Program-made: the position numbers and the translations under genes
Part shown: positions 1,464 through 33,219 of the stretch, one piece after another
Position numbering within the stretch: the first letter of the stretch is position 1
Layout: every line of letters begins with the position of its first letter
DNA from: Undaria pinnatifida
Lineage: Eukaryota; Sar; Phaeophyceae; Laminariales; Alariaceae
Length of the DNA stretch: 64,000 bases
Assembly (NCBI GenBank): GCA_012845835.1
Contig: JABAKD010000009.1
Coordinates: 3,758,904 to 3,822,903 of the forward strand
Direction of reading: 5' to 3'
Notes under the pieces: model-generated
Told to the model about the DNA's origin: nothing
What the model saw: the letters and a program-made list of their open reading frames with translations, nothing else
Databases searched by the model: none

Positions 1464-2340
1464 CTAGTCTCAGGTACTGGGATTACGAGATGGTTCTCGC
1501 ATCTGGCCACGCCCACTCCCCTCTCTGGTGCCTGACACGGCTGATAAATGTCTCGCATCTGCTTTAGCCGTAAAGAGAAGCTTGAGAGCTCGAGAAGAAG
1601 TCGAGAGTACTCGCAAATGATAAGGTCGCTTTCCTCAATGCAACCTTCGATTCGGTAAAACTTGTGTCATCCTGCCGAAATCTCGTTTATGGTCAGGAAC
1701 CCAAACCGTAAATCATCCTCTATTTATTCTCATGTTGGTCACGTATTGCGAGCAGCTGATTCAGCTCCCGCATCTTGGCCCTTCGAGACCTCCCGATCTC
1801 TCTGCCAACGTTTTAAGGTCCCGGTTCACAACGCCCATATTCGCCGCACCTTCAGGCATGGGTAAAGTGTAGCACACAGCTCGCTCCCTTTAACAGGGAG
1901 AACTGTTTTTGTGATATCTCCACCTACCAAGTAGCTTTCTTGGTACCCAACACCCTACCACGTCACCCAACACCCTTTGCTTCGAACCGGGAAGGTACAG
2001 CGTAAGGTACGCAATATTTATCGTATTTGTGGATCCTTACGAAGCGTAGAAGGCTCACCCGTTGAGCTGACGATGGTGGGGTAGTAGAATCACCGGTATG
2101 AAGACAAGTATTACACGTAGATATAGATTAAGTTGCTCCAAGCCAAGGCACATCGTGAAGCGAGGAGTAGACACACTCGGTGGAAAAAACAAAACGAGAA
2201 AGGACGGCGAAATAGCCAAGCTAATGCCGCCATCCGGATATTCCACTACAATGTAGCCAACCTATCACTGAAAACCCATTTAACACACAACCGTTATTAT
2301 ATCCGCATCGTATCCAAGCATACAATCAACAATGCCGTCC
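1464..2340. other. Unassigned spacer
   Basis: I see no long open frame and no repeat match inside the window. The left end (to about 1660) continues the CAG-rich duplicated sequence of the frame beside it. There are short direct copies of a phrase around CACCCAACACCCT near 1950-1975. A GGTTCGAAGC box on the minus strand near 1983 resembles a tRNA B box, but no acceptor stem or A box pairs with it. Confidence 0.4.
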
Positions 2341-2344
2341 AAAT

Positions 2345-3690
2345 ATAACGGGTATCACACGGGCACGGGCTTAATGATGCACACTAACAACAATTTGAAG
2401 GCAGTCGTATTCGAACACGCTACTATTCAAAATATAGCTTAGTAAGAACGATCCATATAGACTATGTGTTCTCGCAGTATGGGTTTATTCATTGCTGCCA
2501 TAGTAACTACTTCGACGTAATGCCGCTCCTATTGCATTGCGGCATGTTTTTGCTTGCTTCCATGAGGCGGTCGACTACCGTTGTTTTCAAGTAAATGGGC
2601 AAACACCCAGGGTTCGGCACTGGCATCGTACCTACCAACTGGCAGAGGACGCCAGCTACGATTAAGGTGGTACCACTAGGCTGAGACGTTTTGCAACTGA
2701 CGACATGGTTGGTCCCACAATCGTCGATACTTCTATTCTTCTGTGGAATACGTATGTTTCAAACCCTATTGTTCGACGAAGAGTTTCTCATCGGGTAGCC
2801 CCTATTATCTTTCAATCGGTTTCCTTGGTGCGGTTTAGAGACCCTCATATCAGAAGACAAGGGATACAAGGGGTTCAACCGTACTGTGGAATTCGCCGGA
2901 GAAAAACATTTGTGTCAACGGAGACCGTGGCTACGGAAGGACGGGGGTGGGAGAATGCCTGCCTTTGATTCATAGCCGTAGTCCTCTGCGACCTGCGACC
3001 CCCGACGTAAGATACCGCGACAGAGCACGCGATAAGGTTTCACTGATAACTTAGACATCGCGTACACCGACCGAAAGAACGCTCTTCGGCGAGCCGGGTA
3101 AAGGGTGAGCCGCATGCAACTAAGAATATCTTGTGAGGCGGACTACCGCATATTGTGCGATCTCCTTTGCATACGTGAAAGAGGCTTGGCATGGATTGAC
3201 GTACTTTTGTTCGGAAACACTTCCAGAGAAAGCATCGGGAATCACGTTTTGGCCAACGTACTTCTATGACTTTGAGATATTCCAGCGAATCTACATCCTC
3301 TTTGCTTTTGCGCTTCTTGCTTTCAGGAAAAGCTTCCCAATGAAAGGTGGAGAATGCTTGTTTTGCTACGTCAACAAGGAAACTTCAGGATGTCGGCAAA
3401 CTATCAGAAACACGTCAGCTGTTCGTACGGTAACCTTAAGGTCCATCCTTCGCCGGTGTTGGAGTGGTCTAGTTTCCTCATTTGTAGCGAGGGTACCGTT
3501 TGAAAATACCGCAGTCTCCCTAACCTTTACTAACGCCTGAACTGTTTCCTTCTTGACTGTTGAAAGGTGGTCCTTAAACTACGTGGCTCTGGCGGAGGAA
3601 AATCGACAGAAGAGACATGGACGAAGCACCTGCGGATGGCCAACGGGGCAATATTGTTACGGCCTCATTATGATTGAGGCAAGTCCTGCG
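2345..3690 (+). repeat. E repeat copy 1, module A
   Basis: This stretch aligns by eye, with many substitutions and small gaps, to 16908-18395, 31140-32480 and 35605-38130. Anchors shared by the copies are GGCAGAGGACGCC near 2643, GTCAACGGAGACCGTGG at 2916, GCATAGCCGTAGTCC (2971 here, without GC at its start), CGACAGAGCACG near 3018 and a CTTGTGAGGCGGAC phrase near 3131. I estimate roughly 70 percent identity between copies. No frame is open across it and I recognise no protein. It continues directly into module B. Confidence 0.75.
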
Positions 3691-5584
3691 GTGGAAACGT
3701 AATGCGCATATATTAGGTCGATTAGTTTCGTTCCATGTACACAATGTGGACAAGCATTCCTTTTTCTCCATAGAACAGACCATCGGGCGCATTTCCAATA
3801 CGTGTCACACCAAACATGTGCAGCGCCTAAAAGCAACGTACGCTTTATTATATGGCGCAGGGACATGGGGGCATTGCTACACACCAAGATTCGTGCGGCG
3901 CCCATTGCTCTAGCCTGTTCCTGTTGGGAACCGTGTATCTGGCCTGACGAACAACACCTTTGCATTTGTTCCCTTGCGCCTTTTGTCAGATCTGGCGCGC
4001 GGACGCAAAAATGTGCTCACTCTCTGTAGTACCGGCGTCCTTTGACGACGTACCATTGACTTTTTCATTCACAAAAAACACTACACCTCATTAACGCAGT
4101 CGTAACTGTGATTTGGTGGCCTCGTTATTTTCAGCTCAATACCACCAACGCAAAATACACACGATAAACATGGAGTGCTCTGATTTAGTTGTCAAGCGTT
4201 GTAGTGTTTGTACCTACCGGTAACCCTTAACCACTATTGATGGTAACCCCAGAAGGCATTTACTTCCGGACGACTACTGCGGGTGCGGGTAACCAGACCC
4301 CCATCACGCGAGACCTTACACTTATTTCACTACAAAAATTGGTTTCGCGACACACATGCCCATGTGGCCGCTTGCTTGCAGTTGCATCCAAGAGGTACAC
4401 ATTATGACTATTTTCGACGTCCCAAACTCGTTGATGAAAATAAGAGTGTATCGCAAATTAACTCTGTGCCATCGATGTTGTAGGAAAAAGAGCGTCTAAA
4501 CAATCGTAGGTACCTTTAAAGGACGCACGTTAAGCTTACCACCGTCATCCTGGGCGTAGGTTTCGAAATAGCAAGCAGTTCGTTTGACATGAACAGAACA
4601 GGCGGAGGAAACGTGACGGAGAACGTCGGGGATTCACCAACCAGGCATAATTTGCTTGCACGGAGTGCGAAGCGCCGTGAGGTATTCGGCGAGCCGCAGA
4701 GAGGGTGAACTTCATCTTTCCAAAAATCGCTTGTGAGCCGGACTTCGGCACATTTTGCCAATTTCTCGCTTATGAATGAGGGCGCCAATGATACATACTT
4801 TGTTCTGGTGATGCCACTCCGGAGACAGCAATGGGTATTCCTATGTACCTGCCTCGTGGGTGCCTTAATATATTTACATTGCGTGATGCGATCATTCGCC
4901 ATGTGCGGAGTTGAGGTTCTCCACCCCGAAATATATATTAACTACTCGACCACCAATCTGGTGACCACCGAAAAATACAAAAAGCGGTACCCCGGTTGTC
5001 TAGCTAGCTATGAGATTTTCACGTTTAACAGCGTTCGTGCCAAGAAATGTCAATCTCAATACGCACAAAACATTTTGCAGCGTCGGCGCCGACCGTCACA
5101 AACACAGGGGGTTACAATAATACTGTTACCAGCACAGGCTTCTGTACAGCAGGTGCACCTTCTGTGTTATGAAGCTCCTTGCTTCAGGTGCTGTGTACCT
5201 CAATAAACACAACTGGAGGTTCACGCCAATCGCTAACACCAAGGCCTCTGTGATCCCCGCAATCCTCATGCTCTACAAAAATGACATTTCAACGAGTTAG
5301 GGGTTTAAGAAGGCCAATCATTCGGACAAATGTTTGCTCTAAAATTATAGCTGTTGCGTAATACTCGTCTACTAGTATAGTTACGTTTTTCATTCCGACC
5401 GAACCGTGAAGCACAAGCTTTAATCGAAGAAGCCAATGTGAAGAACTCTTGTCAATCCAAAATAAAAAAAAATCGCCTTGCAAAGAAGCTTTGCGTCGCG
5501 CTCGGGAGTTTGATATTTATGCCTCACAACGACTGTATCCAAAATATGTTCAAAGGCTAGATCCAAGAGAGGGCCGGAGTCTGG

Positions 5585-5619
5585 ATCACATGCGCGGGCC
5601 ATCCAGGCGCGCATGTGAT
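5585..5619. repeat. 12-bp perfect inverted repeat (hairpin)
   Basis: The arms ATCACATGCGCG (5585-5596) and CGCGCATGTGAT (5608-5619) are exact reverse complements around an 11-base loop, GGCCATCCAGG. The homologous site in E copy 3 (about 59565-59600) keeps the loop sequence, GGCCATCCAGG, but has imperfect arms. Confidence 0.85.
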
Positions 5620-5680
5620 GAGGTCGCGAGTTTGAAGTGGAAAACATTCAAGTTAAGATATTGATATTAACCAAATATTT

Positions 5681-5912
5681 ACTCTGGTTGTGAGATCGAA
5701 GATTTTGTCGAAAATCATCTGTGCAAGTGATGTGTCATACTCCGATCGCGCGTATTAGGGTGTGTGTGTCCTCATTAAGCATATGGGTCGGCGAAACCCC
5801 TTTGAACTACAATTTGATTATCAGGGTCACCCGCGTGATGTTGGTTAGTTTGTGCGCGAAAACTACAGCACCCGTTATTGAGGGGGAGAAAACGTGACAG
5901 CTGTGGGAGGAT
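5681..5912 (+). mobile_element. F repeat, fragment inserted in E
   Basis: This carries the F terminus (GGTTGTGAGATCGAAGATTT, then CTCCGATCGCGCGTATTA and GTGTGTCCTCATTAAG) and reaches the internal ACAGCTGTGGGAGGA at its right end. The same order is seen at 57158-57740, and in reverse at 29415-30047 and 44640-45225. Module B is continuous in copy 3 at the matching position, so this is an insertion. It has no coding capacity and so would be non-autonomous. Confidence 0.75.
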
Positions 5913-7359
5913 ATGCGGAAGTTGATCAATTGTATCAACTGTAACTCGTATATTTGGTGAGAAAAGGACTTTTACGTGGCAGGGTTGAGGAAACAATGAT
6001 GTGGAATGGTCGACGTTCTACGGTCGGCGGTGATCTGCCATCGCCTTTCTAGCGGTTGCGCTTCTGTCCGAGAATCCCGTGGACTAATTGTGATAAACGA
6101 GGAAATTTTGTTTTGTGTGGCGTCGCCGAACGCGTGTGACAATGAGCAAGTAAAATTGAAAGATGATCGACGAGCGGTGGGATTGCTGCGATTACTTTAA
6201 ACTCAGCCCGAACAAAATGACGACACGCTCTGGGGAGATAAGTCGACACGCGTGCGACCACGGCATGTCAAAAGAGTTGGAAACAAGTGCGAGGCACGTA
6301 CAAAATGCGTGTCAAAATTGACACACAACGACAACATTACGCACTACACCATCATTAAGCCGTGTAACATGCGCTTCGACATGGGTAGCACCTACATCGT
6401 CACGTGAGGAGCTCTACGCATACAACGCATTTTACCACTGACTTTAAAGCTCAATGATCGTGCGACCCGACCTTTGAAGGACATCGAACCAATGACTATG
6501 ATAAACAGGAAGAGGCAGCCTGATACAACAATCTCAGGGCCTACTGCACGTCGGTACCAATAAATGGCATTAAAACGGTGTTGAGCAGCTCCTCACTTAA
6601 CCCTGTACATGGATTCCTCCAACACTATGAAAGATTTGAAGATGTTCTTTTCAATGGAATGTCACCTGAAGAGGTCTATCTCCCACCCAGAAGGGTATTT
6701 ACATCGAAATGAGACGCAACCCGACAAAAACACCATCACCAAGGATTACAATAAACCTTTAGTTGTGAAACAAAAACGTTTTAAGAGCGATTTATATTAG
6801 GGAAACCAGACATTCAGACAGAAAATGTGACAACTGAAAAGTGCTACCCATATCAACGTGGCACGTGTCTCAGTTCCAAGGTGGTATTAATCATGTAGCG
6901 CGCCTACTACTGACTCCAAGTCAACACTGTAAATGGTTACCTCAGAGTGTCCTAACAAATGATAACCTATGAGTGTGCTGGGGCCTTATTACCAATGCCG
7001 TATTTAGCACACCAGTCGGTCATCCCGCAGTCGAAGATGTCGTCACGTTTTCAAGTAAAGAAAGGTGGAAGAGGACACCCAAGCACAGACAGAAATCCTC
7101 AACCGCGAGCTACGCCTTTATTTAGAAGAGAGGACTATGCATTTTATACTGACATAGGCATCAACGCTCCCGAGTGTTATGAATTTCGTAACACCATCCA
7201 CCTGGCTTTGTTGTCAACAAAAAACCGAACATGACCACTACAACAAAATCTGACATTTACTAGGCTTCAGTCGCCTCTTTCGACCCGGGCAGCGTTTCCG
7301 AGCAAAGACATGTTCCGGTCGACCGTGACAGCAGAGTTAGAAATATGACACCGAGCCCT

Positions 7360-8520
7360 TGCTAACAAGAGGCGGTGAACGCGAGGCTCAGTCACCCGCG
7401 CAACGACAAGGGCGGGAATTTCGTTTTAACTGTTTTTTTTGTGTGGCAGCGCCCCGGCACTACAACCGAATGATATTGTTTGTGGAATTCGTAGCACGTA
7501 TGGGGGAGGAGCGCCTGCAACAGAGGGTTTCGTCTAAGGAGCTTGTTAGGGGTGAGGGCTACTCAAGGGGGCACGAGGAGATCTGTCTGGTTCATGTATA
7601 GGACGAGATGTCGGCCTTTGGAATAAAATTCGAAAGGTGGCAAAAGGTTGTTCAAAAAGTCGGCAGATGGTGTCGACGAGCGGAGCAGGGAGCAGAGTTG
7701 TTCATGCCCAAATGGCATGAGACTGAGAGACGCAGAGCTGTAGAGCGACGCGCAAAAGCCGCGAAAGCGCCATGAACTGTGAGCATCTCCTAGCGGCAGG
7801 GCGGACGGGGGGGGGCGGGGGGGGGGGGGGGCGACGTCCTGCTCTTGAGCCTCAAGTCTGGAACAGGCCATCATCGTGTTGAAACTTGTGAGAGTTCCAA
7901 CGGCAGTCACAAGCTACCCTAGAGCCGACCTGAAAACTTCGCCTTGTTGCGTTGTTTCCCCAGAGCTATTGATGCACCTGAAACCTTCAATGAGCTCGAT
8001 GCCGTTTGAGTCAGTTCGTAGGGTCTGGTAGTATGACGAAAATATTTCTCTTTGCCCCTCTTTGCTTCCTCTTCCCGTCTTGTCTTTAAATTTTTTCTGT
8101 CATCCTATTTTTTCATGCTTTTTTCGTCAATATTTCTTTTCTTTCCTTACCTTTCTAAGTTTTTTTTTCTTGTATTCGTGTCCTTTTATCAATTGACTTG
8201 CGTCTTACGTGCGTATGCGAAGTTATATGTACTACGTGTAATATATGCGCGGTAGTCTTCTTGAGTAGCAAACGGTATAGTTTGTTTTTACCGTATAGAC
8301 TTGACATATCGTAGGCTGACTCTCGAGTATTTATTATTCATGTTTAAGGCGGAGTCATGAACTGCGTCCCCTGTTATTAATGCGTGTACCACTTTCAGTT
8401 TATTTCTGCTTTTCCCTTAAGGTATTCTTCTGTTCCAGAGTGACTGGAGCCTGTCCTGTGACCACGGACTTGATTGTGCGAGTTAATATGAGAATATCAA
8501 CAACAACTGCAGGAGCTCAA
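7360..8520 (+). mobile_element. LINE-2 copy 1, 5'-truncated 3' end
   Basis: Only the end of the LINE polyprotein and its 3' UTR survive. Readable coding remains are ILFVEFVARMGEERL at about 7470-7515, then a frame giving GAELFMPKWHETERRR near 7695-7735. Both match 15735-15970 in copy 2. The 3' UTR has a T-rich tract (8050-8200) and a conserved ACTACGTG(T/C)AATATAT phrase (8230; also near 16499). It ends with the AGAGTGACTGGAGCCTGTCC block and a short CAACAACAAC tail at 8499. There is no reverse-transcriptase core. A long poly-G run (about 7806-7830) sits after the stop. The element splits E between module B and module C. Confidence 0.75.
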
Positions 8521-9250
8521 CAGTATATACTCGAGTCCACAGCTGACACGCGCTGCAATAGAGATGACACTTCTGCGATGAAGGTAGACCAGTAAAGCAG
8601 GATAAACTCGTACACCAGTAGTTGACATTTTGCCAGTATTGTTGTCTGCCGTGGCATGGCTCGTCGTATTTCTTTCAAGACGTTTTCCAAAACCACTCGT
8701 TACCCGGAAAGGTCAAGAGCCCCTTACCGTGAATAGCCTCAAGAAAAGTGCAATCGAACAATACCGTAGTACGACATCTCCCCACGTACGTCAAAACGTT
8801 AATCGTCATGTGCCCCGAGCATGGGATTGGGAACCCGTCGTTGTTCTTGTCAGCGTCGGTTGGTATACGGGACACATGGTACCAATAGTGCTGTAGATGT
8901 GCGCCATCTCTTGATAGTTTCATAGAAACTCTTCGAACATTGAGGTGTTCTGCGAGTTTCTCTTCGAACCTTGAGGTGTTCTGCGAGTTTACTTCAGCCA
9001 AAACACTTCACTGGCGGGAACGAAAAACATTACCGGACACACCGATCCATGCCCGTCCTTGGTTTGCAAACAGAGCAATGTTGGGACATGAGAATGGCAT
9101 CCTGACAACCCTAGGTTAAAGCGACCCGCGCTTCGAAACACATCTCAGCTACAAGCAGTCACCACTATCGTATCGCGCGTTGTTTATGTGATGTGCCTAT
9201 TGTAAAGACCATGGGATTTTACATCGTAGATGGTTTGTAGCCTCGGATCT
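8521..9250. other. Unassigned spacer with a 31-bp tandem duplication
   Basis: I find no gene and no clear match to the other E copies here. An 88-codon plus-strand open stretch at 8630-8896 has no recognisable motif. The one clear structure is a tandem duplication at 8929-8959 and 8960-8990, CTCTTCGAAC(A/C)TTGAGGTGT onward, differing at one base. Confidence 0.6.
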
Positions 9251-12200
9251 CAATCACGTTACAGTGTAAAGTTCCTTGCAATTATACGAAGCCCTTGAGA
9301 ATATGCATTGATATATGCCGCCGGTACCTTAATATGCGTCGCGGTTGCTATAGGCATACCCCAGAGCACGTATGGCGTTTCGGTACTTGTCAATTGTGGT
9401 GCAGTGCACCTCTGACCCGAGGTAGAAGGCGGTTGATTTTGACAGACATTGAAAGCGCAATCCGCCAAACGCAACCATAGCTTAGGTATGCAGAGAACGA
9501 TTTTTTGTGGCTGCCGTCGTTCTACCCCGATAGAAACACCAGCGTTTGAAGCAGAGCGGAATCTCACACCGCCAATCGAATACCATTCCCGGAAAACCCA
9601 TCTGTGGTTGCTATCTTATACCACATTGAATCAACGTAATTGAACGAACATATGTATAAGAGTGGAAGGCCTGCTTGTGACCCCGGGTCTGAATCACCAC
9701 TGGGAGGGAGCACGAGAGTAGTGTGAAGGTAAGGAATCGAAAGGAGAAGAAAGACGAAAATGTGAGGTTCTCACACCTTTAGTCGGGTCGTGACATAGTT
9801 CGGGGAACGCTCCCCATTTATTTTGCCTTGAAACGGCGGTATATGAACACGAGATAAAAGCCGAGACGGAAAATTTCCAGGACCTTTCACTGATCATGGC
9901 CCAACCAGCGGGTAGGGTACAGAGAGTTTCACAACATGGCGGGTCAGGTCGTTTTTTTTCTTTTTCAATTTCACCAGTGAAGAGGGCGTGTTGCGTACGA
10001 TCGACGTAGCACTTTGTGGCTAATACAAAGAAATATTGTTTCCTTGATGACCTAAACTCTTTACCCTTATTAACCCAGAGGATATAGTCGGTTTGATATT
10101 CTCCCTTTAAAGAAAGCATTTTCGTAACGCCTCCGTCATACGACTCTCATTCAGATTTATCACACTTTTTTTAAAATTTTTTCAAATCTGTTTGGGGCGC
10201 GTGGAGTATAGAGTAGTGTCGGTCACATGGGGAGCCTCAGGAAAAAAAGGGTGCATCTCCACCGTTACACGTTGCCAAGAGCCAACGATCGTTGTGGCTG
10301 ATTCGGTGAGGTTTAGGTTTAGTGTTTTTAAGATGAATGGTTGCAGCCGATGAAGGTTATATATCTGGGTTTTATTTGGGACCAGGATGACCATGTGCTA
10401 CCCTACAGACACACCAATACGTTTACAAGATTCCTCGCAAAAAAACGCGATATGTTTAACACGAAAGCTGAATTTGCTACCGAGGAAAAAAGAATTTGCT
10501 ATCCAATGAAAACTCCCATGGCCCGGGTATGCACCAAGAAATATTACAGAATCAAACGAATCATTTCCGGACGAATTTGGAGTTAGAAAGCCCCTCGTTC
10601 AGAAACCGGTCCAGCCCCAACGTGCATATTTCAAACTAACAGGCATCGCGGGTAGGGTAACGGCTTCGCTCAGGGCCGGAAGTTAGGCGTGTTTAAATGA
10701 GTAGACGAAACGTGTGTGTGACAACCAGGTTTTCCACTGCAATACTTTCTACCCCTTTTTCTCAGCCAACTAGATCATCAATAACGGTAGAATAAGGCAC
10801 GAGAAAAACCCGCGCACAAATCGGTGATAGATACGTTCCAACTCAAAGAGGTAATGAAGGGCGGACCAAGGTTGTGAAGGTGATCAGACCCATATACCCT
10901 CTTGGCGCGTGAATCGGCTTCAGTGCACGCCCGCAGGGTTTGAGTAAGGCTTTGGATGAGGGAAAAGCGACTTATGAAGTACTTGGCGCCGTTTATTGCG
11001 CGCGGGAATCATTGTGGACGACAAAACATCCTTACACCGAGACTGATGCAGAGACGACGGCAAATACCGTCTACCAGGCCCTCGTCGATGCACGGGTTGT
11101 GAACGAATGATCAATAGTGTTGCATACCTCGTAAAGAATACTCCTCAAAAAGATTGTTAGTTGGAACGATTTCTGAACTAAGGTGAGCGCGACAGGAATA
11201 GGGTATTTGCTCTAAAGTACTCCTGACTAACGGGGGTCTACCTCAACTGACGGCTATGCTACCACCCAGGAGTCGTCGGGGTTGTTCTTAGCTAATGATG
11301 AAAATCTAGGACACCATTGGTTCGTGGGAAACGTTGCGTTGTTGTTACATTCAACCGTTGAGAAACTAACATGATTCATCTTATATATTTGGGTACGTGG
11401 TTCATTCAGAAGTCCCCGTCAACCACTTGATATTTGCCCTAAATGACCGTCTACCTTCATCGTATCAAGCATTAACACGAGACCTTTTCTTCAGATACCG
11501 AGTTAAATCGTCCAAGCGTTGACATCACAATGAATGGTAATCAAACCTTGTTTGGGGGTGGCGGAATCGTTTACCGTTGGCCTATAATGGTGTATGACGA
11601 AAATGTAACGAAAGATATCTCGATATATTGTTAAGGTTGACCTATCCCCAACAATGACTTCATCACGGACGTGTTCTTTCGATATGACACGAAATATCCC
11701 AGAGTATTTTTTTTATGTGTGCTTTTTCTTGAACGTCGATACAATCGTCCGCGAATGCGTAAATAGCACTTGCGAAGCGCCGACTGAGGTTCGAGTAAGG
11801 GTTATCGGACGCAAGTGACAAAAAGGAATAATTACTCGTATTCTGAGGTTCCCGACATGAGCAGGTTAATGCTTAGAGAAAAACAAGAAACATGGATGAA
11901 CGCAAATGTACGAGGTGATGAGTAATCGCATGGCCTAGACATCAAGCGAAACCGCTCGCGAACCAAGAATGGTATGGCGAATATTTTCAGGGTAAATATA
12001 CCCTGTCATTCGGACAACGTTTGAGCCACAAGAAGTTACCCGTATCGCAGCACGCCTGTACAGCCCGCCAAAGGTGGCGCGACGACGACACATCCGTCAT
12101 TACTGTCAACATCGCTTCAGACGCGCGCGACTTTATAAGACACGCGCCGCGATAGAAGTGGCAAAAACGGTTTCTTAACGACGTGGATCTTTAGCTGAAA

Positions 12201-13545
12201 ATACGTCATGATTATTGTTGTTGGTTTGCAGTAGGGGTTGTCGTAAAGCTAGGGGCCATGAAGATTATCGATCTTCGAAAATATGTCCGTTTTTTTAAGG
12301 CAGTCGTTTGGTAACGTATAAGGCGCTTGGAGTCAGGAGTTACAAAACGTATACATGATGCAACTCCACCGTGTTACCTGACGTGCGTCCATAACGCGGT
12401 GAGGCTTGTAACATGACGAGCTGCTTCACCACCATCCGACAATTCACGTCAAAAACAACTCCAACCATGGCCGATATGGGTTATCGTAGGCTGATTGTCC
12501 AGAAGATACTATGGTGGACAGCGCATACCCGGGATACTGTGGGAGGTGTACACACATGTTGACTGCATCGTGTTTCTTATTACACATAACTCTTAAATTA
12601 GCTTTAAAACTGTTTTTGTTGCTGCTTAGAAAAGGTAAACCACTCGCGAGAATGCCTCGTATTGAGTCGCTGACGGCGGACTAAACAACAATAACCCGCC
12701 TTGCCGCAGCCGTACTGTCGTCAACATCGGGTCCGAAGACTTTGGGTAGTTCCTCAGCCGCGGAGCCACTCCGTCGAAAACGCGAAATCGGGGTCCGAAG
12801 ACTTTGGGTAGTTCCTCAGCCGCGGAGCCACTCCGTCAAAAACGCGAAATCGTTCATATTTATGAGAAGATAGAGTACGCGTGTTCGAAGCCCGACTTTG
12901 TCATTTTTAAGGTTTGTAACGTGAGGAGATGTATACCTCGACCTAAAAACCACTATCGAGAAACATGAAGAGGCAACCTATAAACAGATCCATGGGCTAG
13001 GTACACGAGAACATTCGGTTTAGAAAAAATGCGTTCGGACGACTTTGGGGTCGGTGGGCTCCGCCATTTAGAAATCGTTTCCTATGCCTAGCTCAGCACG
13101 CGGCATTTTACCCAATATGTTGGTCTTGTATATCCTCAAAGCAATTCAGGGAGACCGGGGAAATCAGCAATCATGGCGCGTACTACGAGTAGGCATATGC
13201 ACAATAAACCTTGACACGAAAAACACGCAAACTTCTGGTGATCGCTACAGGACGTTATGGTTAGGTATATGAAATTCATTCCATCTGGGAACAGCTAACA
13301 ACGACTTCATGCGTACCCGGCATTGTTACCATGGAAACCGGTAAAGGCTACAACGAGCATAGGGGTGGTCCACTCCTAAAAAATAGCATTAGTGTGCGGG
13401 CAACGAGAATCGTCTCGAATTTCAGCCGGTTGGCGCTATTGTTGTGTTTTCCGTTCGACAACATGCATCTTGAACTTCAGCATTTGACCACTAAGAAACG
13501 TTGCTACACAGAGGAGATGAAACCCACAGGGAATCTACATTAATG
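9251..13545 (+). repeat. E repeat copy 1, module C
   Basis: This aligns with 21270-25950 (whole length) and 61360-63990 (left part, cut by the window edge). Landmarks are AATATGCGTCGCGGTTGC (9331; 61417), the GGGAGGGAGC...GAGAGTAGTG phrase (9701; 22360; 61799), the ACGATCGA(C/G)GTAGCACTT phrase (9998; 22653) and GCCGGTTGGCGC near 13424 and 25823. A short plus-strand frame at about 10930-11105 (QGLSKALDEGKATYEVLGAV) is matched in copy 2 by PQDLGRTLNEGSAKYGVLGA at about 23637. This may be a remnant coding block of unknown family. The rest has no convincing frames. Confidence 0.75.
12729..12852 (+). repeat. Recent 62-bp tandem duplication
   Basis: The unit beginning GGGTCCGAAGACTTTGGGTA occurs at 12729-12790 and again at 12791-12852. 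The two copies are almost identical (one G/A change seen), in a module whose other copies are heavily diverged. The matching site in E copy 2 (about 25168) has a single unit, so the duplication is young and specific to this copy. Confidence 0.9.
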
Positions 13546-14454
13546 GGTAGTACATGTCCTCACCTGACAAACCAAAGTGACAGACAAAGCCATGTTTATT
13601 GCGTTTGATATGCATAATTTAGAATTTTTGTCGGGATGGGGGTCCCAGAGGATTCTATGGGTATGAAAAGACGAGCCCCCCAAGACCAGTGTTGGCTGCA
13701 CCTGGACGCGTGACCGCTAGGAAAAGGGCACGACGAACACAAGCGAGTTAGGGCTTATGCCAATGACGTCGACAGACATAAAGTAGTCCCTAGATATGTC
13801 GCCAAGCCGGGCATTTAGGTATTGTACGCCTGTCAGTTGTCTGCAGGGGCACGGGATCAACCCTGGCCAAGGGACCCCCAACTCTTGGGAATATTGGACA
13901 TCGACTTGCTGGCCTATACTGGCCACCCGGATAACGGGCGGGGGGATACGTATCCTATGCACGTGGTGGAGTATTGACTACGAACTATACTCGAATATGT
14001 ACGAGTAATGCCGGGTGCACAATGGCATACCATTCTGCCACCTACAACAGCTGATGTGTAGTCGCGGCGAACGCGTCAGGGCAGGTCGCCTTCACATGCC
14101 ACTGGACAGAACCGACAATGCATTGCGCCAAAGAATCGCTGATGCAGGCGAGGTTCTGCTTCGCCTCTTTTTTCATAATCTATATACATACCGGGCCGTA
14201 ACCAGCGAATTTCAGTCGTACGAATAGGTCGTACAAGTAACACCTGGCGCTCAATGGCTATATCATCCGGCCAGCAACAGTCGCCTCGGTGGAGTAAGGG
14301 CGATGGTGGGTGGTGTCGCCCTCATAGGCAATTTGAAAGGGATCCTTCTGCATTATATACTACGGCCGCTGATGCAGGTAGTTGTCTACTCTTCCTTTGC
14401 TTCTGTAACCCGGGGTTACACAAAAACGTTACTTACAACTTTTTGTCCCAAGTT
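13546..14454 (+). repeat. Spacer with a diverged ~215-bp tandem duplication
   Basis: No gene is recognisable. About 14015-14230 and 14245-14450 are diverged tandem copies. Both contain a (G/C)CTCAATGGC or CACAATGGC start, a run of CAGC, then CGCTGATGCAGG (14138; similar at 14369) followed by a TTCCTTTGCTTC or CGCCTCTTTTT pyrimidine stretch. A possible older third unit precedes them. LINE-2 starts immediately to the right. Confidence 0.5.
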
Positions 14455-15057
14455 TAATGCACGTCGTGCAACGGCTGTGCCACGTCGCTAGCAAAAATCG
14501 CCGCTGTGGAGTCATAGCGAGCGCGTAATAATGGACTCGCCCCCACAAATGGTTGAACGAAACCTCGTCTCACGCCGGCAGAGTACTGCTTGAAGTCATC
14601 GCGAGTGGCCAAAGTGACTATTGCGAACACGAGAACATTCTGGCTGAGGAACAATGTTGGTTCAGCCCCAGCGCTCGACGGTTGACATGATGTTCCTATA
14701 CCGACGACTGCATGAACTGGCACGGACGGAGGCCCCCTTGTACTCGTGCTTTATCAATCTTACTAAAGCTTATGACTCCGTCAACCAAATCTTTCTGTGA
14801 CATACCTTAGCTTGTTCCGACGTTCAACCGAGAATGCTCGCCGTCACCCGTGAATTCAAAACGGCATTGAAGCATGCGTGCAGTTCCAAGATGGAGAGTG
14901 TTCAAACAAATTTGACGCGTGGCAAGGCCTCAGGCAAGGATTCCTTCTCGCACCACTGCTCTTCAACATGCTTTTTACGGCGGTATTGAGCGCCGACAAG
15001 AAAGGTTTCATCGACGATGCAGCAATAATGAAAAACATGGCACAACTCTAACGAAAG

Positions 15058-15315
15058 ATGGTGGAAGGCGAGGACAAGGGCACTTCTCGCACAGGCCAGA
15101 TCGACGGCCGAAGGGGAAAGGAGAAGCAGGAGGTGCAGATAGTATGGAGTATGCTGTACGCTGACGATGAGGGCATCGCATCGCGAACAACGGAAGGGCT
15201 CGGGAGGATGACGACGGTGATCGTGACTGGGCGCTCGGCGTTCGGGCTTACGGTTTCCGAGGCGAAAACAGAGATTATGTGCGTGAAAACCAAAGACGGG
15301 GGGGAGGTGTCGTGA
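15058..15315 (+). pseudogene. LINE-2 reverse-transcriptase segment with intact YADD
   Basis: This 85-codon open segment is the longest surviving piece of the LINE-2 polymerase. It holds the polymerase box C (Y-A-D-D at 15157-15168), preceded by a charged Lys/Gly-rich linker and followed by the FGLTVSEAKTEIM box D region. It opens at the first available ATG, but in the parent element it is internal, so the start is not genuine. Stops and frame changes lie on both sides. Confidence 0.8.
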
Positions 15316-16667
15316 ACAATCAATGCCGCCGGCCAGGTGTGAAAACAATGTTGACAAGTTTGAGTACTTTGGCGGGGCTACCACCGCAGAAAGAGACCCT
15401 AAAACTAAAATAACGCGGCGTCTTCAGAGGACTTGGTCGTGCTTCCAGCTGTACAAGATGTAAACCTATGATCTCCCGGGTGTGCGCTTACGGTTGAAGG
15501 TGGGGTTACTGAAAGTCGAGGTTATCAAGACACCACTACACTGTTGCGTGACATGGAGCCGGAACAAGCCTGACTATGACACACTACAACGAGGTCACCA
15601 CTCCATGCTCCTCCGATGCCCCGCATTACGGAGCTGGAAAAGCGACGACCACACCCTATCGTACGCCAACTGGCTTGCCGCGATAGCTTCCGAAAGGATA
15701 GAGACGTAAAGCGCGAACGAAGGGTGGAATCGTGGCACGAATAAGGGAGGAGCGTCTGCCACAGAGGGTAATATTGAAAGAGCTGGTTGGCGGTATGGGC
15801 TAATCAGGGGGGCAAGAGAATGACTGACTAGAGAATCTAAAAGAGAATATGTCGGTCTTTGGAACGAAATTCGAAGGGTGGCGAAAAGCTTCTCAGAAGG
15901 CCGACAGACGGTTTCGACGAATAGAGGAGGGGGCCGAGTTATTTATGCGTAAATGTCACGAGCCGGTGTGACGCAGAGCTGCAGAGCAACGTGCAAACGC
16001 CACGGCAACACCGTCCATGGTCTGCATCTCTAAGCGGCTGGGGAGAGTGGGAAGGGCGGGAAGGTGGCAGGGAAGGTAGGGGGGGCGGAGGGAGGTAAGG
16101 GGAGCGTCCTGCCCAAGAGCTGGTAGCCTGGGTCTGGCCATCATCGTCTTGAAATTTGTGTGCCTTTCCCATGACCGTCAACAGATCGCGCAAGGCCACC
16201 CTGGCTTTTTCGCCTCGCTGCATTCTCTCCCCTGTACCATTCATGCAGCTGATACCGTCTATGAGCCTAATGGGGTCTTTAGTCAGTTCCTAGGGTCTAT
16301 TAGTATGAGGATATTTTCTATTTTCCTTTTGCTTGCTTCTCATTGTCTCGTCAATTCTTGCTTTTTTGGTATTTTCTTTATTTCCTTTCTTTTCGCCTCT
16401 TAGTATATCCTTTCCGTTCATCTACTTTTCTCTCTTTTTTTTCATGTTCTTTATCTCAATAGGCTTGCGTCCGGCGTTAGTGTGGGTAGTGATACATACT
16501 ACGTGCAATATATACGTGGTAGTATTTCTTAGGTGGCAAGCGATGTAGTCGATATTTCAAGGCAAGAGGAGTGAGATGTATGCCCCAGTATGGACCTGAC
16601 ACGTCGTAGGGTGACTCCCGACTTGATAGTTTTGTATGTTTATGGCGCAGATATGAATTGCGTCATC

Positions 16668-16780
16668 TGCGATATATACACAACCCGTATTACGCGCGAT
16701 CGGAATATCACACACAGCTTGCAAAGATGAGTTTCGACAAAATATTCTATCTCACAGCTGGAGTATATTTCAAAATTTAA
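16668..16780 (-). mobile_element. F repeat fragment inside LINE-2 3' UTR
   Basis: This is the reverse complement of the F terminus, with CACACAACCCGTATTACGCG, CGATCGGAATATCACACA and CTCACAGCTGGAGTATAT in order. LINE-2 copy 1 lacks it at the equivalent position (about 8370-8420), which marks it as an insertion into the LINE. Confidence 0.7.
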
Positions 16781-16907
16781 TATAAATACATGTGTGCCAC
16801 CTTTGATTTGTCTGTGTTCAATCCCTGGGATATTAGCTCCAGAGTGACCGGAGTTTGTCCTGTGACAGCGGACAGCAGCAACAACAACAACAATAACAAT
16901 TAAAATG

Positions 16908-18395
16908 ATAGTCAACGGAGACCGTCGTTACAGGAGGACAGCAGGGAGGTTGCCTCAATTGAGGCATAGCCGTAGTCCCCCAAGGCCGATGACCCCCCTA
17001 TCCTCAATATGCCGCGGCAGAACACGTGAAGGCTTCACTGATCAGTCAGACATCGCGTGAACAGAAGGCGAAGGGCAAACGCGAGGCTCGGTGAGGTGAC
17101 TGGAACGCCGCGTGAAGGGTGAGGCTCATGATACAAAAGAACCCTTGTGACGCGGACCTCCGAACCACGTGCGACCTCTATTGCTCACCTGATGGAGATT
17201 TCGGCAGGATTGACTTATACAATTTTGTGGCTACTTCCAGAGACAGCAGGAATTGGCATCCCTTTTCAGCCGACGTCTTTCTTTAATTCTCAGACATTCT
17301 AGCCATGCTACTTCCGCAACGCTTGTACGCTTGTGCGCTTCGAGGTTTAACGATAAGCTTGGACAAGAAAAAAGAGAATGTTTGTACTGCTTGCGAAAAC
17401 AAGTGGAAGCAAAAGTTGGTAATTACTTCGCGAATGCGTCAGGTTTTCGTAAACTAGCGTTAAAGGTAATATTGTTCCGATATTTGGGTGATCTAGTTTC
17501 GGCATTTTAAATGAAGGTATAGTTTGGATATACCGTAGTCACCCTAACATATTATGACACCTCAACTACTTCCCCTCTGACTCATTAGTCCTCAAATAAC
17601 GTCCTGCCTTCAAAGCGGAAGAACGACACAACAGCCGAGCACAGGGCACCTGCTGATGGTCAACGCGGCAATGTAAAGGTCCGTGTTGTTATCGAGGCAA
17701 GTTTTGTCGTGTTCCATTGTGTATGTTTTCGATATCAACACATGAACATTGAAATCATGGCAGGAAATATAAGTTATACATACCACGGTATATACTGATT
17801 GACATACCCTCTCCTCCATTATTCTGTGCGAACTTCCTAATTTCTTCCAAAAACGACAGTTTTTGATGAACCGACACGAACTCGGATTACTTAGCTTTGG
17901 ATGATTTCCACTCCCAATATCAAACGATAGCGAGAGGATGGTCCGTACGTTACTCAAAAATAAGGGATCAACTACTTGGTACAATAGAGGTATACAATTT
18001 GCTGAAGCAAATACGTTTAACCCCCAGATAGATTCGTTCGCGACCGATAAACTACCCGTTGTCTTTTACACCCCTTCTTGCATTTCCAATGTTCAGCCAT
18101 GTGCGGCTGTCCGTCAGGTAATTATATTTTTGGTTGTGTCCTCCAAACCGGGTTTTGTTTGTGGTATGGCAATTTTCAAGTATAGAGCCTAGGAAAAATA
18201 GGGGGGCATCCTTGCCCCGCTATTCCTTCACTAGTACCATATCCGACAAACACTATACCTTGTCTTCAGGACAACGCATCCTACGACTATGGCGGGTTAC
18301 ACGCGTCAACCAAATATGGTTCTGGTTGGCGTAGCTCCTGAAGCATGTAGTACCGTTTGTGTATTATACCTTATCACATTAATCGTTATACATCC
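16908..18395 (+). repeat. E repeat copy 2, module A
   Basis: It starts at GTCAACGGAGACCGTCGTTA, immediately after the LINE-2 tail, and follows copies 1, 3 and 4 through the CATAGCCGTAGTCCCCC and CTTGTGACGCGGACC landmarks. After about 17700 it departs from copy 1 but stays with 37430-38130 (shared CAAACGATAGCGAGA...GATGGTCCGTACGTTACTC at 17921 and 37662). Module A therefore exists with two different right-hand continuations. Confidence 0.7.
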
Positions 18396-19744
18396 ACTTG
18401 GCCATTAATATCTTGGTAGGAGTTCATTCCCACCGTCCTCGGAATATATCTTCGTTTGAGCCTCAGAAAATGTACATATTCGGACGTATATCATTCATTG
18501 CCTCACATGGTGTGGATCGTTCAAGAGTACTGACTACGCAGTTGCGTTCGAGTGGGGAAAAAATTGTTTTTCTTTGTGTTCGTACGAGGGCGGTTTACGC
18601 AAAAGCAGGCGATGCACCCGCGCTCAACCATGACGCATGCAACGATAAAGGTGGCAAATTTCGCAAAAACGTGTTCCGTTTATCGGGGATTCTCAAATAA
18701 ATCAATCGCTGTAACGACTACCACACTACCCCGTGTCGTTGGCACCCCAATGTTTATGTGATATGTATCATACGCAAGCCATTATTTTTATTATCGGGGT
18801 GGACTTTCCATCTATCTCAAAGTCGCGTTTGAAGAGACATGCAGCATCCCTGATACAAGGATGCACATCGAGGACATGGCCCATCCTCGTGTGGGGAGAG
18901 TTGCAGAGGTGGCGTGGACGGACCAGTGCACATTACTTGAGATGGAGAAGAAAAAATGACAGCTTGGAAAAAAATGCTTACGTACAAAACGGGAAAACAT
19001 AATAAGAGAAAGAAAAAAAACAGATAATAACGACATATAAGGAAATAAAAAGAGGAGAAATGGAGTTTTCGACGTGGGGTGCGCTCTAACGTGATCCCCA
19101 CCGTAATAATACGCGCATGCTACGGGCATATGTACCCTACATTTGGTCGTTCTAGCCGACAGACCATCCTAGAGTATAGTTTGTCATAAATACTCCCTGT
19201 GACATTCCCCGATACTCAAAGTCATAAGCTATTTACAACCTTAGTATAGTATACACCGACCGAAAAAAAAAACGCGGTTCCTCGCATATTGTATGTCTCC
19301 CCATTAAAACTAATTCGCGTAGTGCGCTGAGGTCAGCTTTTGCCCATCAACTAAATAGTAGTCGACTTCAGCTATTCCATGTTTATTTAGGTCTCCTTCA
19401 GTGAGCGATCCGTCGCTAGAGACGTCTGAGACTCGGGAATATGATCACAAATGGTACGCCATACTCAGACTGTGCATAACCAGCGGCAACATGGATGTAC
19501 TCATGCCTGTCGAAAAAAAAAAGAAAACGCGTGCAATGACAAACCCAGACCTACAATATTCACAGCTGTGATACGTAAGTAAATATGTCATGAACGACAC
19601 GCGCGGTGTAATCACCTGTGAGAAAGAGTCAAGAAAAAAATCGCAAACCAGAAATTACACCTAGAGCAAATGATACCAACGAAAGTATAAAACTGTGGAC
19701 ACTGGCCCACTACAGTGAACGGGGCCGCGATTCACTAAAATAAA
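18396..19744. other. Unassigned spacer
   Basis: I find no gene or clear repeat match. The region is AT-rich with several A tracts (18945-19040, 19264-19273, 19513-19523). Short frames at 18733-19002 (plus) and 18812-19129 (minus) overlap each other, carry no motif, and look like chance openings. Confidence 0.5.
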
Positions 19745-20095
19745 TTATTATGTGTGTATGAAAGCTGAATGCAACTGTGAGATTGCAAATTTTGTGCGAT
19801 CCTCGTCTTTACATGCTGTGTGTGTTGATTAATCTCGCTATTTACTAGGTGTGTGTCCTCACTATTGATCTAGGTCGGCGACTTCGCTAAGGCCAAACGT
19901 TGATCAGAGTGAACAGAGTGACGTTAATCAATATTTCCACAGAGAATGTATAACCCCTTTTTGAGGGAGGCAACACCAATGACTACTGTAGAGTTCAATA
20001 TTACACATATACCCTGTAGTCTTACGCCATGAGAAAGGGGGGGTGGGGGCGGTAACACAGAAGGGTGAGGGGGTACTCACTGGTTGCTTGGCCAG
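19745..20095 (+). mobile_element. F repeat, diverged fragment with G-rich end
   Basis: The terminus TGCAACTGTGAGATTGCAAA at 19769, GTGTGTCCTCACTATTGATC near 19850 and GGTCGGCGACTTC near 19873 follow the F order. Downstream similarity fades, then a G-rich stretch (20035-20075) resembles the G/C-rich core of complete F copies. The call is firm for the first 150 bases and tentative after that. Confidence 0.6.
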
Positions 20096-20099
20096 GTCA

Positions 20100-20810
20100 T
20101 ATGACTATTGATCGCGCATCCCTTCGAGAACGAACACCGTTTCCACTTCTAGTAGCAACACCTTCAACATATGGGCGCTCAATACCTTTTCTCCACGTAC
20201 TACATATACGCGGTTAGTTTATCCTTTGCCCTTCCAGTTTCTCCGCCTGTACCCACAATCTGTTTGTTGGAATAGCGATTGTATCCTCGTTTCATTCAAC
20301 GATTAGTCTAAACAACTCTTCCATGTCACATTTGTCCAATTTCCTCTTCAACTCCTCGAACGCATGCCCGTCCTCCGTTTCTATTTTACATTCACATACT
20401 GTGTGAGTCTTACTTTCTAGTTTTGTGCCACACAGGCAAATATACACCTGCATCCACGTACTCCTTCTCGTGACTACTGGTATATCTGTTTCTTTTTTCT
20501 GTTTGCTCCAGGTTTCCTACACAAAACCGAAACTGAAGTGTTTTTCGTACGCCATTGCGCCGTGTACGTTTTATTCAAATTTCTTCGTCCAACCCCCCGT
20601 TTATCTCTATTCGAGTATTTCTCCAGTATGACATTTTTTTTTTGCCCTGGTCTTTTCCTTCGTTCCACCCTTTGTATTACTCTTGTCTTGTACAGGCCAA
20701 TATTCTCTCTGGACGGTACTATTTCTAAGTCTCCTCCTAAACTTTTGAATGTTTTTTCTGCGGTCTACGGTAGGCCGTTCACATCAATGATTAGCACACC
20801 AGATATTTTG
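20100..20810 (-). mobile_element. LINE-1 3' fragment, reversed
   Basis: The minus strand reads almost continuously in one frame through LINE-1 C-terminal sequence: IEINGGLDEEI (near 20620), RYTSSHEKEYVDAG (near 20475), ESKTHTVCECKIETEDG (near 20410), LKRKLDKCDMEEL (near 20350) and ERPYVEGVATRSGNG (near 20170), with only a few stops. The same order appears on the plus strand at 26700-27400, 29200-30480 and 34950-35590. A Cys/His pattern (CxC...H...C) typical of LINE C-termini is visible. The polymerase is absent. Confidence 0.8.
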
Positions 20811-21269
20811 CGGTAAAAATCCTTATGAGTTGTAAGCTGAACATCAACGAATGGCATAAAACGTTTCAAGACCTGTCGTTGGGTCCTCCTTGGGGAGATA
20901 ATACCAGGTTGCCATCGTCTACTGCATCAGCCACAAACAGTCATTTTGGGCGCCGAGTTTACGGGATCTCGCCACCTCGCAGGCGCCGGGTCTCCTTCAT
21001 CTTGGTTTGTGATAGGCATGTGACGCTCGTACTCAGAATAGACGACTAGAAATTCGACCCTATTGTCGAAGATAAAAACATCACCATAAAAACAAAAGGG
21101 TTTAGCCCCGTCTATCGCCAACTTGACGTCCTGGTTTAACAGGCCACCGGGTCGGCCTCGAAGTCTGTGGTTACCCAACATGAAAACTGGACTTGGCCAA
21201 CGCCGGGTCGTCGCGCTCAAGGTGGTGTAGAGTTTCTCATGGCCTTCGTCTGTTGTATCCAACCAAGAC
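20811..21269. other. Unassigned spacer left of module C copy 2
   Basis: A minus-strand frame (21385-20927, 152 codons) crosses the boundary. Its first 25 codons lie in module C. The remainder (containing DGAKPFCFYGDVFIFDNRVE) has no counterpart in the other copies and no family I know. It may be a coding remnant or a chance opening. Confidence 0.35.
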
Positions 21270-25950: not shown

Positions 25951-26699
25951 TCTACAGTATTATGCAACATGTCTCGCTTCCTACTGTGAATAATTCCGGA
26001 TAATTTTGTTCGATTTTATCCAGCTGCCGCTATTACTTCCCCCTTTTTCTTCGTCACATGCATGCTCACCTACTGTCGGCATCCCAACGTAAACTTTCTT
26101 TAGTGTCTTGTAGTATTGCTATATGACACGCGCTATCAAATAGGTTCGCTATTTCGACTATGAGACACTTCATTTAGGGACTTTGTACCCCACAAGAAAC
26201 ATTACAATTCGAAATTTGTATTTATTTATGAGGCTCATCAATTACGCGTTCTGTACCTCACACTCAACCGTATACAACGTAAACTTAAGGCACTTTCCGG
26301 CCAACAAAACCACGGCCTAGGTATTAAACACAAATATATTTTGTTAAAAAAGAACGTACTCCGGCTTGTCAGTATTAAGGATTCCGGTCATGCACAACAC
26401 ATTTACGCCCAAAAGCTTTCCCTCTACCGTACCGACCGTGACGGTGTAAATCAGTGTAACCCCCGCTTGATAATGTTGTTGACGAAATATGGAAGGGTAG
26501 TGTCTATGAAGTTGTTAGCCGCTACGCACAAGACGAAGGCGACAGGAGGAACGGAAGACGCGTGCTACCAAGAAGGTGCACCACTTTTTTCAAAGGTCCC
26601 GTACTGTTTCGGAGTTTACGATCTATATAAAAACTGGTTTTGAGTGAAATATACTGGATGAAACTTTCCATGGATTAAGTACACAACGATAATCACTTT
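25951..26699. other. Unassigned spacer
   Basis: No repeat match is apparent. A 100-codon plus frame at 26341-26643 ending before a TGA is the only notable opening. It is basic and has no motif I recognise. The sequence is AT-rich from 26100 to 26350. Confidence 0.4.
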
Positions 26700-27400
26700 A
26701 AAAGTATCGGATCCCCGTCATTACGCAAAACATCTCCGACGGAAAGTGATACCTCTCTTGTAGCACCAGCGAAAAAAATATAACACAAGAAATGGGAAAA
26801 GGCAAAAGCTTCTGAAAAACAAGGTGAAAGAGAAGCACTTGGAGATACACGGGTGGTTGAATAAAGACATTGGAATTAAACGTATCTGCATGGCCCGATG
26901 TGCTAAACAAAACAGCTGACACTGCGATTTCGAGCAGTGGACCTTGAGCTACGAGAATCAAGGAAATAATACTTCTGTAGTCTGGAGGAAGATTATGTGG
27001 CTACACATATGTGCCTTTGTGGCACAACAACATAGAGTAGGACTCACGTAGCAGGAAAATGTGATATATGCAAAGAGGAACGATATGCGTTAAGAGGAGG
27101 GGAAGAGAAAATCGGACCTATGTGACATGATGGAGTTTTCGAGACTAAAGAGTAGGAAGAAAACATCCATTATCCCAGGATATCGAAAGTGGCCGCTGAC
27201 AGCGAAACATGACGGGCATAAGAGAAGCAATCCGTTTTAGGTTGACATTTGAAAAAAGCGTTAGTGTCTCTATCAGGAGTAGGAACGGTGCTCCGTCTAG
27301 GAAGGGATGCTTGGTCAGTGGACAAATGAGTAAGGTAAGCAACAGGTATACACGACGCCCCCCTATCCATTCAATAAACAGAGATGGCAGAGAAGAAGGA
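26700..27400 (+). mobile_element. LINE-1 copy a, 3' end
   Basis: This contains only the C-terminal third of the LINE-1 polyprotein: KHLEIHGWLNKDIGIK near 26835, THMCLCGT near 27005, then SVSIRSRNGAPSRKG at about 27264-27306, where the reading is in frame in an 82-codon opening. The last motif is the most conserved part of this family in the window. Stops and frame changes separate the pieces. It lies head to tail with the next LINE-1 copy. Confidence 0.8.
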
Positions 27401-31130: not shown

Positions 31131-31139
31131 GTTTCCTGA

Positions 31140-33205: not shown

Positions 33206-33219
33206 TACTGAACACAAAC

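What the first reader, a model, noticed from the sequence alone, without database searches (positions are those of the whole stretch)
2345..13545. An unclassified repeat of at least 11 kb (E) in several ancient, same-orientation copies
Modules A, B and C occur in a consistent order at 2345-13545, 16908-25950 (A, C), 31140-32480 (A), 35605-38130 (A) and 56680-63990 (B, C). All are on the same strand and are diverged to roughly 70-75 percent by my estimate. I find no reverse transcriptase, transposase, integrase or capsid-like frame in it. It may be a giant non-autonomous or virus-like element, or a very old tandem segmental duplication.
Basis: partly seen in the sequence, partly recalled or inferred. 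Interest (0 to 1): 0.75.

Follow-up and report, generated by a model that had tools for sequence, protein, structure and literature searches.

The report
Ancient giant tandem array, brown alga
The repeat is a set of worn, neighbouring copies of a roughly 20-kilobase non-coding DNA block clustered in a gene-poor region of nearly five megabases of what is most likely a brown-alga chromosome; it looks like old tandem and inverted duplication, not a new mobile element or virus.

Summary
The similarity is real: A, B and C align at 64-75% on one strand in one order; five shuffles gave nothing comparable. But the 11-kb 'element' is not a unit. A/B/C belong to a tandem repeat of about 21.8 kb, clearest in a sister stretch where A recurs every 21.8 kb and a 43.6-kb step is 95% identical. 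The window holds four consecutive degenerate units. Of 149 listed match rows to three probes, 118 lie on contig C61 at 0.24-4.89 of 21.3 Mb. Copies range from 98.6% to about 64% identity. Much of the window has an inverted counterpart 2.6 Mb away at 83-91%. No coding signal held up; no Pfam domain was placed in A/B/C (one weak hit unplaced). Mobile-DNA marks belong to nested elements: a LINE, an LTR-like element, a 9.6-kb insertion. The host is most likely a brown alga. Best reading: an ancient macrosatellite or segmental-duplication array, grown by unequal exchange and block duplication and decaying neutrally.

The parts
2345..16907 (+). Degenerate tandem unit 1 (A, B, C in order), about 14.5 kb, with LINE insertions (the phase at which a unit is said to begin is arbitrary)
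   Evidence: Matches reference positions 147-17711 in order; inverted counterpart of most of it at 83-88%
16908..31500 (+). Degenerate tandem unit 2 (A, C)
   Evidence: Matches reference positions 836-21831, with some local repeats out of order
31500..35965 (+). Truncated tandem unit 3 (A)
   Evidence: 31635-32095 matches the start of the reference unit; 33683-35954 matches 18135-21831
35970..64000 (+). Tandem unit 4 (A, B, C) with large insertions; runs past the window end
   Evidence: Matches reference 1-15092 at 67-75%, two short rows out of order; next listed A copy at C61:3830570, i.e. window coordinate 71667
2339..3692 (+). Module A copy 1
   Evidence: own-genome search listed 40 matches (40 of 443 candidates scored), 34 on C61
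4619..6624 (+). Module B copy 1
   Evidence: 65-67% to 58603-60274
9288..13539 (+). Module C copy 1
   Evidence: 66-68% to 22320-25938; own-genome search with 10277-11514 listed 64 rows, 53 on C61
16911..17672 (+). Module A copy 2
22320..26157 (+). Module C copy 2
31635..32459 (+). Module A copy 3
36112..37378 (+). Module A copy 4
58603..60274 (+). Module B copy 2
61373..63975 (+). Module C copy 3 (cut by window end)
7482..8281 (+). Probable decayed LINE 3' end, nested in unit 1
   Evidence: 68% to 15724-16549, which follows the RT remnant
14848..15294 (+). Reverse transcriptase remnant (RVT_1) of a LINE, nested
   Evidence: Pfam PF00078 E 5.2e-8, 33.3 bits over cut-off 29.6
43289..52890 (.). 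9.6-kb insertion absent from two sister copies; holds an 89/138/227-bp satellite
52967..56221 (.). Dispersed LTR-like non-autonomous element carried inside the unit
   Evidence: probe 53344-54700 listed 45 rows, 14 on nine contigs other than C61; the one such copy read, on C23, has 258-bp, 87% direct terminal repeats

Best explanation
E is not an element. It is part of one very old, gene-poor, non-coding macrosatellite (segmental-duplication) array in what is most likely a brown alga. Shown: a unit of about 21.8 kb is repeated head to tail in a sister stretch and, degenerate, in the window; copies of many ages from 98.6% to about 64% identity coexist; at least one block has been duplicated in inverted orientation over 2.6 Mb; no reading frame is kept. 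Inferred: unequal exchange between units and block duplication create and remove copies, old units are not homogenised throughout and so drift apart, and transposable elements (a LINE, an LTR-like element, a 9.6-kb satellite-bearing insertion, short interspersed repeats) land in the array and are copied along with it. It persists because it lies in a gene-poor, probably heterochromatic region where neither selection nor deletion clears it.
For: Tandem order and period: A at 3546, 25369 and 47131 of the 50-kb sister stretch, with 829-6414 against 44416-50000 at 95.4%; four consecutive units in the window. Location: 34 of 40 A rows, 53 of 64 C rows and 31 of 45 rows of probe 53344-54700 are on C61, all at 0.24-4.89 Mb of 21.3 Mb; the 17 other A and C rows are on C21, C22, C30 and C36. 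Age range: K2P 0.011-0.452 in the core of 26 copies. No codon-phase bias in 44 HSPs of 600 bp or more (lowest p 0.07; satellite and the window's own locus left out) or in those of 500 bp or more (lowest p 0.065). Longest run free of shared stops in 12 well-aligned copies 163 codons, against a mean of 140 and maximum of 217 in 40 shuffles. Inverted block: window 796-27383 and 55369-64000 match C61:1.124-1.156 Mb inverted at 83-91%. Gene poverty: 14 of 227 exon rows for four common families lie on C61, all at 8.2 Mb or beyond.
Against: Identity is not even in every pair: of 21 pairs that I chose out of 325, several are roughly even, but L018-L021 runs from 0.75 to 0.93 and L026-L033 from 0.97 to below 0.5 at one flank, and in old pairs the A core is slightly more alike (about 0.70-0.75) than the downstream flank (0.63-0.69); mosaic exchange or weak constraint is therefore not excluded. 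The 26-copy shared-stop test gave one 266-codon run above the maximum of 220 in 30 shuffles; it lay in poorly aligned flank and vanished in the 12-copy test. Unit spacing is irregular (about 18-42 kb between neighbouring listed copies). Only 40 of 443 A candidates were scored, so dispersed low-identity copies elsewhere are not excluded. Block order and orientation on C61 rest on an assembly I could not check. In the first 6 kb of C61 I saw only short, weaker matches.
Confidence: 0.78

Rival explanations
1. A giant (11-20 kb) non-autonomous mobile or virus-like element that inserted many times and then decayed.
For: Many copies; nested dispersed elements exist in the unit, one of them (52.9-56.2 kb) with 258-bp direct terminal repeats in its C23 copy. 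Copies of A and C also occur on C21, C22, C30 and C36.
Against: Homology runs on past both sides of A in many of the loci compared. The copies form head-to-tail series in one region. No Pfam domain was placed in A/B/C in six-frame scans of the parts given (one weak RVT_1 hit unplaced), and there was no NCLDV capsid match in the genome (although no control genome rang either).
Confidence: 0.07
2. A tandem gene family (coding or non-coding RNA) whose gene lies in a part of the unit that I did not resolve.
For: Megabase clusters of 10-30 kb units are typical of multigene families (established knowledge). The A core is slightly more conserved than its flank in old pairs.
Against: No codon-phase bias, no ancestral reading frame in the 4.2-kb A region, no 100-bp window above 87% identity outside interspersed repeats in the HSPs of 500 bp or more between window and sister stretch, no Rfam family at gathering score and no tRNA.
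Confidence: 0.08
3. The array is an assembly product: misordered or duplicated contigs piled at the start of C61.
For: Block orientation flips along C61 (66 of 87 A and C rows sorted; the other 21 rows agree). C21 ends inside array-like sequence without a TTAGGG or CCCTAA in its last 6.2 kb.
Against: Duplicate contigs would be nearly identical, whereas neighbouring units differ by 5-35%. Tandem order inside the window needs no scaffold join (no N).
Confidence: 0.05

Closest known systems
Macrosatellites such as human DXZ4 and D4Z4 (abstract starts seen in the listing: PMC3218863, PMC4278900, PMC3018141)
   Same: Long, not obviously coding unit repeated in tandem, confined to one or a few chromosome sites.
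   Different: Those units are about 3 kb (3-kb DXZ4, 3.3-kb D4Z4 in the abstract starts) and, by recall, much more uniform; here the unit is about 21.8 kb, copies differ by up to 35%, and inverted block copies occur.
Segmental-duplication (ampliconic) clusters of eukaryotic chromosomes (recalled)
   Same: Large blocks copied directly and inverted within one region, with a spread of ages and nested transposable elements.
   Different: No gene family was found to travel with the blocks, and the base unit is itself tandem.
Ectocarpus centromeres and subtelomeres (PMC11541908, passages seen)
   Same: Brown-algal, repeat-rich, gene-poor chromosome regions; telomere motif TTAGGG, which is also frequent here.
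   Different: Ectocarpus putative centromeres are short (median 38.6 kb) and rich in ECR retrotransposons, and its subtelomeres carry a ~98-bp satellite; neither resembles this unit in kind.

Membership tests
Tandem macrosatellite / segmental-duplication array | Long units (over 1 kb) in head-to-tail order | tested here: met
   21.8-kb steps between three A copies; window units 1-4 in order
Tandem macrosatellite / segmental-duplication array | Confined to one or few chromosomal sites | tested here: met
   118 of 149 listed rows on C61:0.24-4.89 Mb; only the best candidates were scored, and the third probe hits a dispersed element as well
Tandem macrosatellite / segmental-duplication array | Units homogenised by recombination (classical satellites) | tested here: not met
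   Neighbouring units differ by 5-35%; this is why I describe it as an old segmental-duplication array rather than a classical satellite
Transposable element as the identity of A/B/C | Fixed ends with target-site duplication | tested here: not met
   For A only: homology among loci continues on both sides, in the best pairs through all 4.2 kb fetched. Target-site duplications and the ends of B and C were not tested
Transposable element as the identity of A/B/C | Transposition protein or its relic | tested here: inconclusive
   No Pfam match placed in A/B/C in six-frame scans with stops as X; one weak RVT_1 (E 0.024) was not located. Indels about every 43 bp between copies (85 gaps in 3675 columns) limit sensitivity. 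About 46.3-51.1 kb was not scanned
Endogenous large DNA virus (Nucleocytoviricota) | Major capsid protein | tested here: inconclusive
   0 matches to PF04451 in the genome, but none of the tool's control genomes rang either
Centromere or pericentromere repeat | cenH3 occupancy or Hi-C centromere contact | not testable with these tools
   No chromatin data

The most novel reading that the evidence does not exclude
The first 5 Mb of C61 is a specialised, long-lived non-coding chromosome domain (a kelp-type centromere or pericentromere, or part of a non-recombining sex-linked region) built from a 20-kb unit that has kept duplicating for a very long time without being homogenised, with related seeds at single places on several other chromosomes.
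Probability: 0.18. Interest if true: 0.55.

Novelty: new member of a known kind. Interest (0 to 1): 0.3.

Why it matters
Over a third of one published brown-algal genome of this size is 'unknown' repeat (36.1%, PMC7058681). This case suggests that part of such DNA can be old tandem and inverted duplication rather than unclassified mobile elements, so repeat pipelines that call consensus 'families' here could misname it. A record of many duplication ages in one region also makes the rate and mode of array turnover measurable.

Tried and rejected
Coding ancestry: codon-phase tests on pairs, on 26 aligned copies and by shared stops gave nothing that held. A as a discrete 1.35-kb element: the boundaries at about 2340 and 3690 are ends of similarity to this one diverged copy; many other copies align through them. 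Constraint on A: column conservation looked higher in the core and old pairs show a slight excess too; I put most of it down to alignment quality at the flanks, without proof. Giant virus: no capsid match (control silent). Sex-determining region: the two HMG-box rows on C61 lie at 17.75 and 18.35 Mb, not in the array; this neither proves nor excludes it. Centromere: cannot be tested. Species: 511,146,479 bases in 68 contigs is close to, but not the same as, Undaria pinnatifida 511,280,173 in 114 scaffolds (PMC7058681; outline and part 1 of the Materials and Methods section read), so I claim only 'most likely a brown alga'. The weak RVT_1 match (E 0.024) was not located; its first frame had no match and one of the eight others was re-scanned without a match. 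Interest is held low because no function or new mechanism is shown.
Full report
OBSERVATION. Five shuffled windows gave no match of 150 bp or more outside the satellite region. GC runs from 0.43 to 0.54 in 2-kb bins. There are no tRNAs and no Rfam families at gathering score.

WHERE THE COPIES ARE. The window is C61:3758904-3822903 of a 511,146,479-base assembly in 68 contigs. Three probes were searched in that genome; rows are matched pieces, so one copy can give several. C (10277-11514) gave 64 rows, 53 on C61 and 11 on C21, C22, C30 and C36 (40 of 96 candidates scored). A (2345-3660) gave 40 rows, 34 on C61 and 6 on C21, C22 and C30 (40 of 443 candidates scored). The segment 53344-54700 gave 45 rows, 31 on C61 and 14 on nine other contigs (40 of 369 scored). 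Every C61 row lies between 0.236 and 4.892 Mb of a 21.3-Mb contig. The A and C rows come in orientation blocks: minus at 0.24-1.19 Mb, plus at 2.03-2.13, minus at 2.34-3.48 with a plus place at 2.52, plus at 3.72-4.89 (66 of 87 rows sorted; the remaining 21 rows agree).

THE UNIT. I fetched 50 kb of the array elsewhere (C61:4716001-4766000). There A recurs at 3546, 25369 and 47131, steps of 21.8 kb. 829-6414 matches 44416-50000 at 95.4%, while the middle copy is 76-77%. Taking one step as a reference unit, the window follows it four times over, with gaps, insertions and a few short rows out of order: unit 1 from 2345, unit 2 from about 16908, a truncated unit 3 from about 31500, and unit 4 from about 35970 beyond the window end (the next listed A is at C61:3830570). 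Neighbouring listed copies of the 53344-54700 segment are about 18-42 kb apart, so the array is irregular.

AGE AND MODE. Among 26 A loci of about 4.2 kb, similarity covers the whole locus in the best pairs. In the core, K2P runs from 0.011 to 0.452 with a median of 0.344, and transitions and transversions are about equal. I compared 21 pairs, chosen by me out of 325, in bins along the locus. Several are roughly even (for example L016-L018 and L016-L031); others lose homology on one flank; L018-L021 is mosaic (0.75-0.93); and in old pairs the A core is slightly more alike than the downstream flank. Even neutral decay is therefore the main pattern, not the only one. CpG is not depleted (observed/expected 1.01-1.05). 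A second 50-kb fetch (C61:1106001-1156000) shows that window 796-27383 and 55369-64000 have an inverted counterpart at 83-91%. That counterpart lacks 5026-6219, 10047-14224 and 27384-55368 of the window; whether these are insertions here or deletions there was not settled. Two further close pairs of A copies are likewise inverted between the 1.0-1.15 Mb and 3.8-3.95 Mb parts (L019 with L021, L032 with L028).

NO CODE. None of 44 HSPs of 600 bp or more (satellite and the window's own locus left out), nor those of 500 bp or more against and within the sister stretch (lowest p 0.065), shows a significant codon-phase bias, and most gaps are not multiples of three. In the alignment of 26 copies 9 of 55 overlapping bins reach 2.0-3.4 times the mean power at period three, about what noise would give, with no run in one phase. 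In 12 well-aligned copies the longest run without a shared stop is 163 codons, against a mean of 140 and maximum of 217 in 40 shuffles. The first version with 26 copies gave 266 against a maximum of 220 in 30 shuffles, in a poorly aligned flank. Six-frame Pfam scans with stops as X covered the window except about 46.3-51.1 kb, in 30 frame pieces. They found RVT_1 once clearly (E 8.7e-7; a re-scan of 13501-16500 places an RVT_1 match at 14848-15294), RVT_1 once weakly (E 0.024, not placed) and DUF6733 once at E 0.25. Frameshifts are dense, so this scan would miss much of an ancient protein.

NESTED ELEMENTS. A LINE remnant occupies about 14.5-16.5 kb, and its probable tail recurs at 7482-8281. 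Window 43289-52890 is an insertion absent from both sister stretches. It contains the 89/138/227-bp satellite and, near its ends, repeated pieces (43292-43444 with 52251-52393; 52176-52249 with 52811-52886), as if two related elements sat head to tail; a Helitron-like identity is only a recalled lead. Window 52967-56221 matches dispersed copies, and the one that I read, on C23 (L059), is flanked by 258-bp direct repeats at 87%, the layout of a non-autonomous LTR-type element. A short interspersed repeat recurs at 5673-5961, 16678-16770, 29401-30052, 30245-30343, 44656-45225 and 57153-57863.

HOST. An open exon of the light-harvesting family from C25 has as best solved relative the chain 'FCP17' (9ygv, 376.6 bits over 180 residues; organism not shown), then other fucoxanthin-chlorophyll proteins. 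Its sequence resembles kelp FCPs that I recall. TTAGGG repeats occur within 200 bases of the start of C2, and TTAGGG is the putative Ectocarpus telomere motif (PMC11541908, passages). I conclude that the host is most likely a brown alga. The total length is near that of Undaria pinnatifida (PMC7058681), but species identity is not shown.

GENE CONTEXT. Exon rows for tubulin (22), light-harvesting (61), HMG-box (9) and protein kinase (135; 131 of 844 candidates scored) place 14 of 227 on C61, all from 8.2 Mb onwards. With about 23% of C61 in the array, none in 14 has a probability of about 0.03 if rows were independent; some are exons of one gene, so this is only suggestive. C21 ends within array-like sequence without a telomere repeat, and the first 6 kb of C61 hold short, weaker matches to the unit.

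INTERPRETATION. The simplest account is an old, gene-poor tandem array with block duplications, evolving mainly neutrally. The steps shown are tandem order, age spread, lack of a kept frame, confinement of the listed copies and an inverted block copy. The mechanism (unequal exchange and block duplication without thorough homogenisation) and the heterochromatic setting are inferred. I saw no description of this array in print: full-text searches for 'macrosatellite' with 'brown algae' (0 papers), for 'Undaria', 'tandem repeats' and 'centromere' (2 papers), and the broader ones (listings only, apart from the passages of PMC12592211 and of PMC11541908) showed none, within an open-access library.

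Noticed in passing
46053-50552: Satellite of nested 89/138/227-bp periods rich in short inverted repeats, inside a 9.6-kb insertion.
   Followed up: partly
43289-52890: Insertion absent from two sister copies, with head-to-tail repeated end pieces (43292-43444 with 52251-52393; 52176-52249 with 52811-52886); possibly a long element followed directly by a short relative.
   Followed up: partly
L059:1778-5383: Dispersed element of about 3.6 kb with 258-bp direct terminal repeats, 87% alike; no coding domain found in its window relative. A probe from it matches nine contigs other than C61; the terminal repeats were seen in this one copy.
   Followed up: partly
5673-5961, 29401-30052, 44656-45225, 57153-57863: Short interspersed repeat, about 74-91% alike, in both orientations; one copy in the sister stretch is self-complementary over 0.7 kb.
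   Followed up: no
12729-12852: Fresh 62-bp tandem duplication (98%) inside module C, at the junction where other copies align in two pieces.
   Followed up: no
29639-29693: Poly-C run of about 55 bases next to a copy of the interspersed repeat; poly-G runs occur near related copies in L049.
   Followed up: no
genome G000, (examples L044-L047): 2994 exact matches to five TTAGGG in a row, many far inside contigs: abundant interstitial telomere-like repeats.
   Followed up: no
G000:C61:2.03-2.14 Mb and 4.58-4.72 Mb: Matching series of A and C copies 2.55-2.59 Mb apart in the same orientation, up to 98.6% alike: probably a recent direct block duplication; the block as a whole was not aligned.
   Followed up: partly
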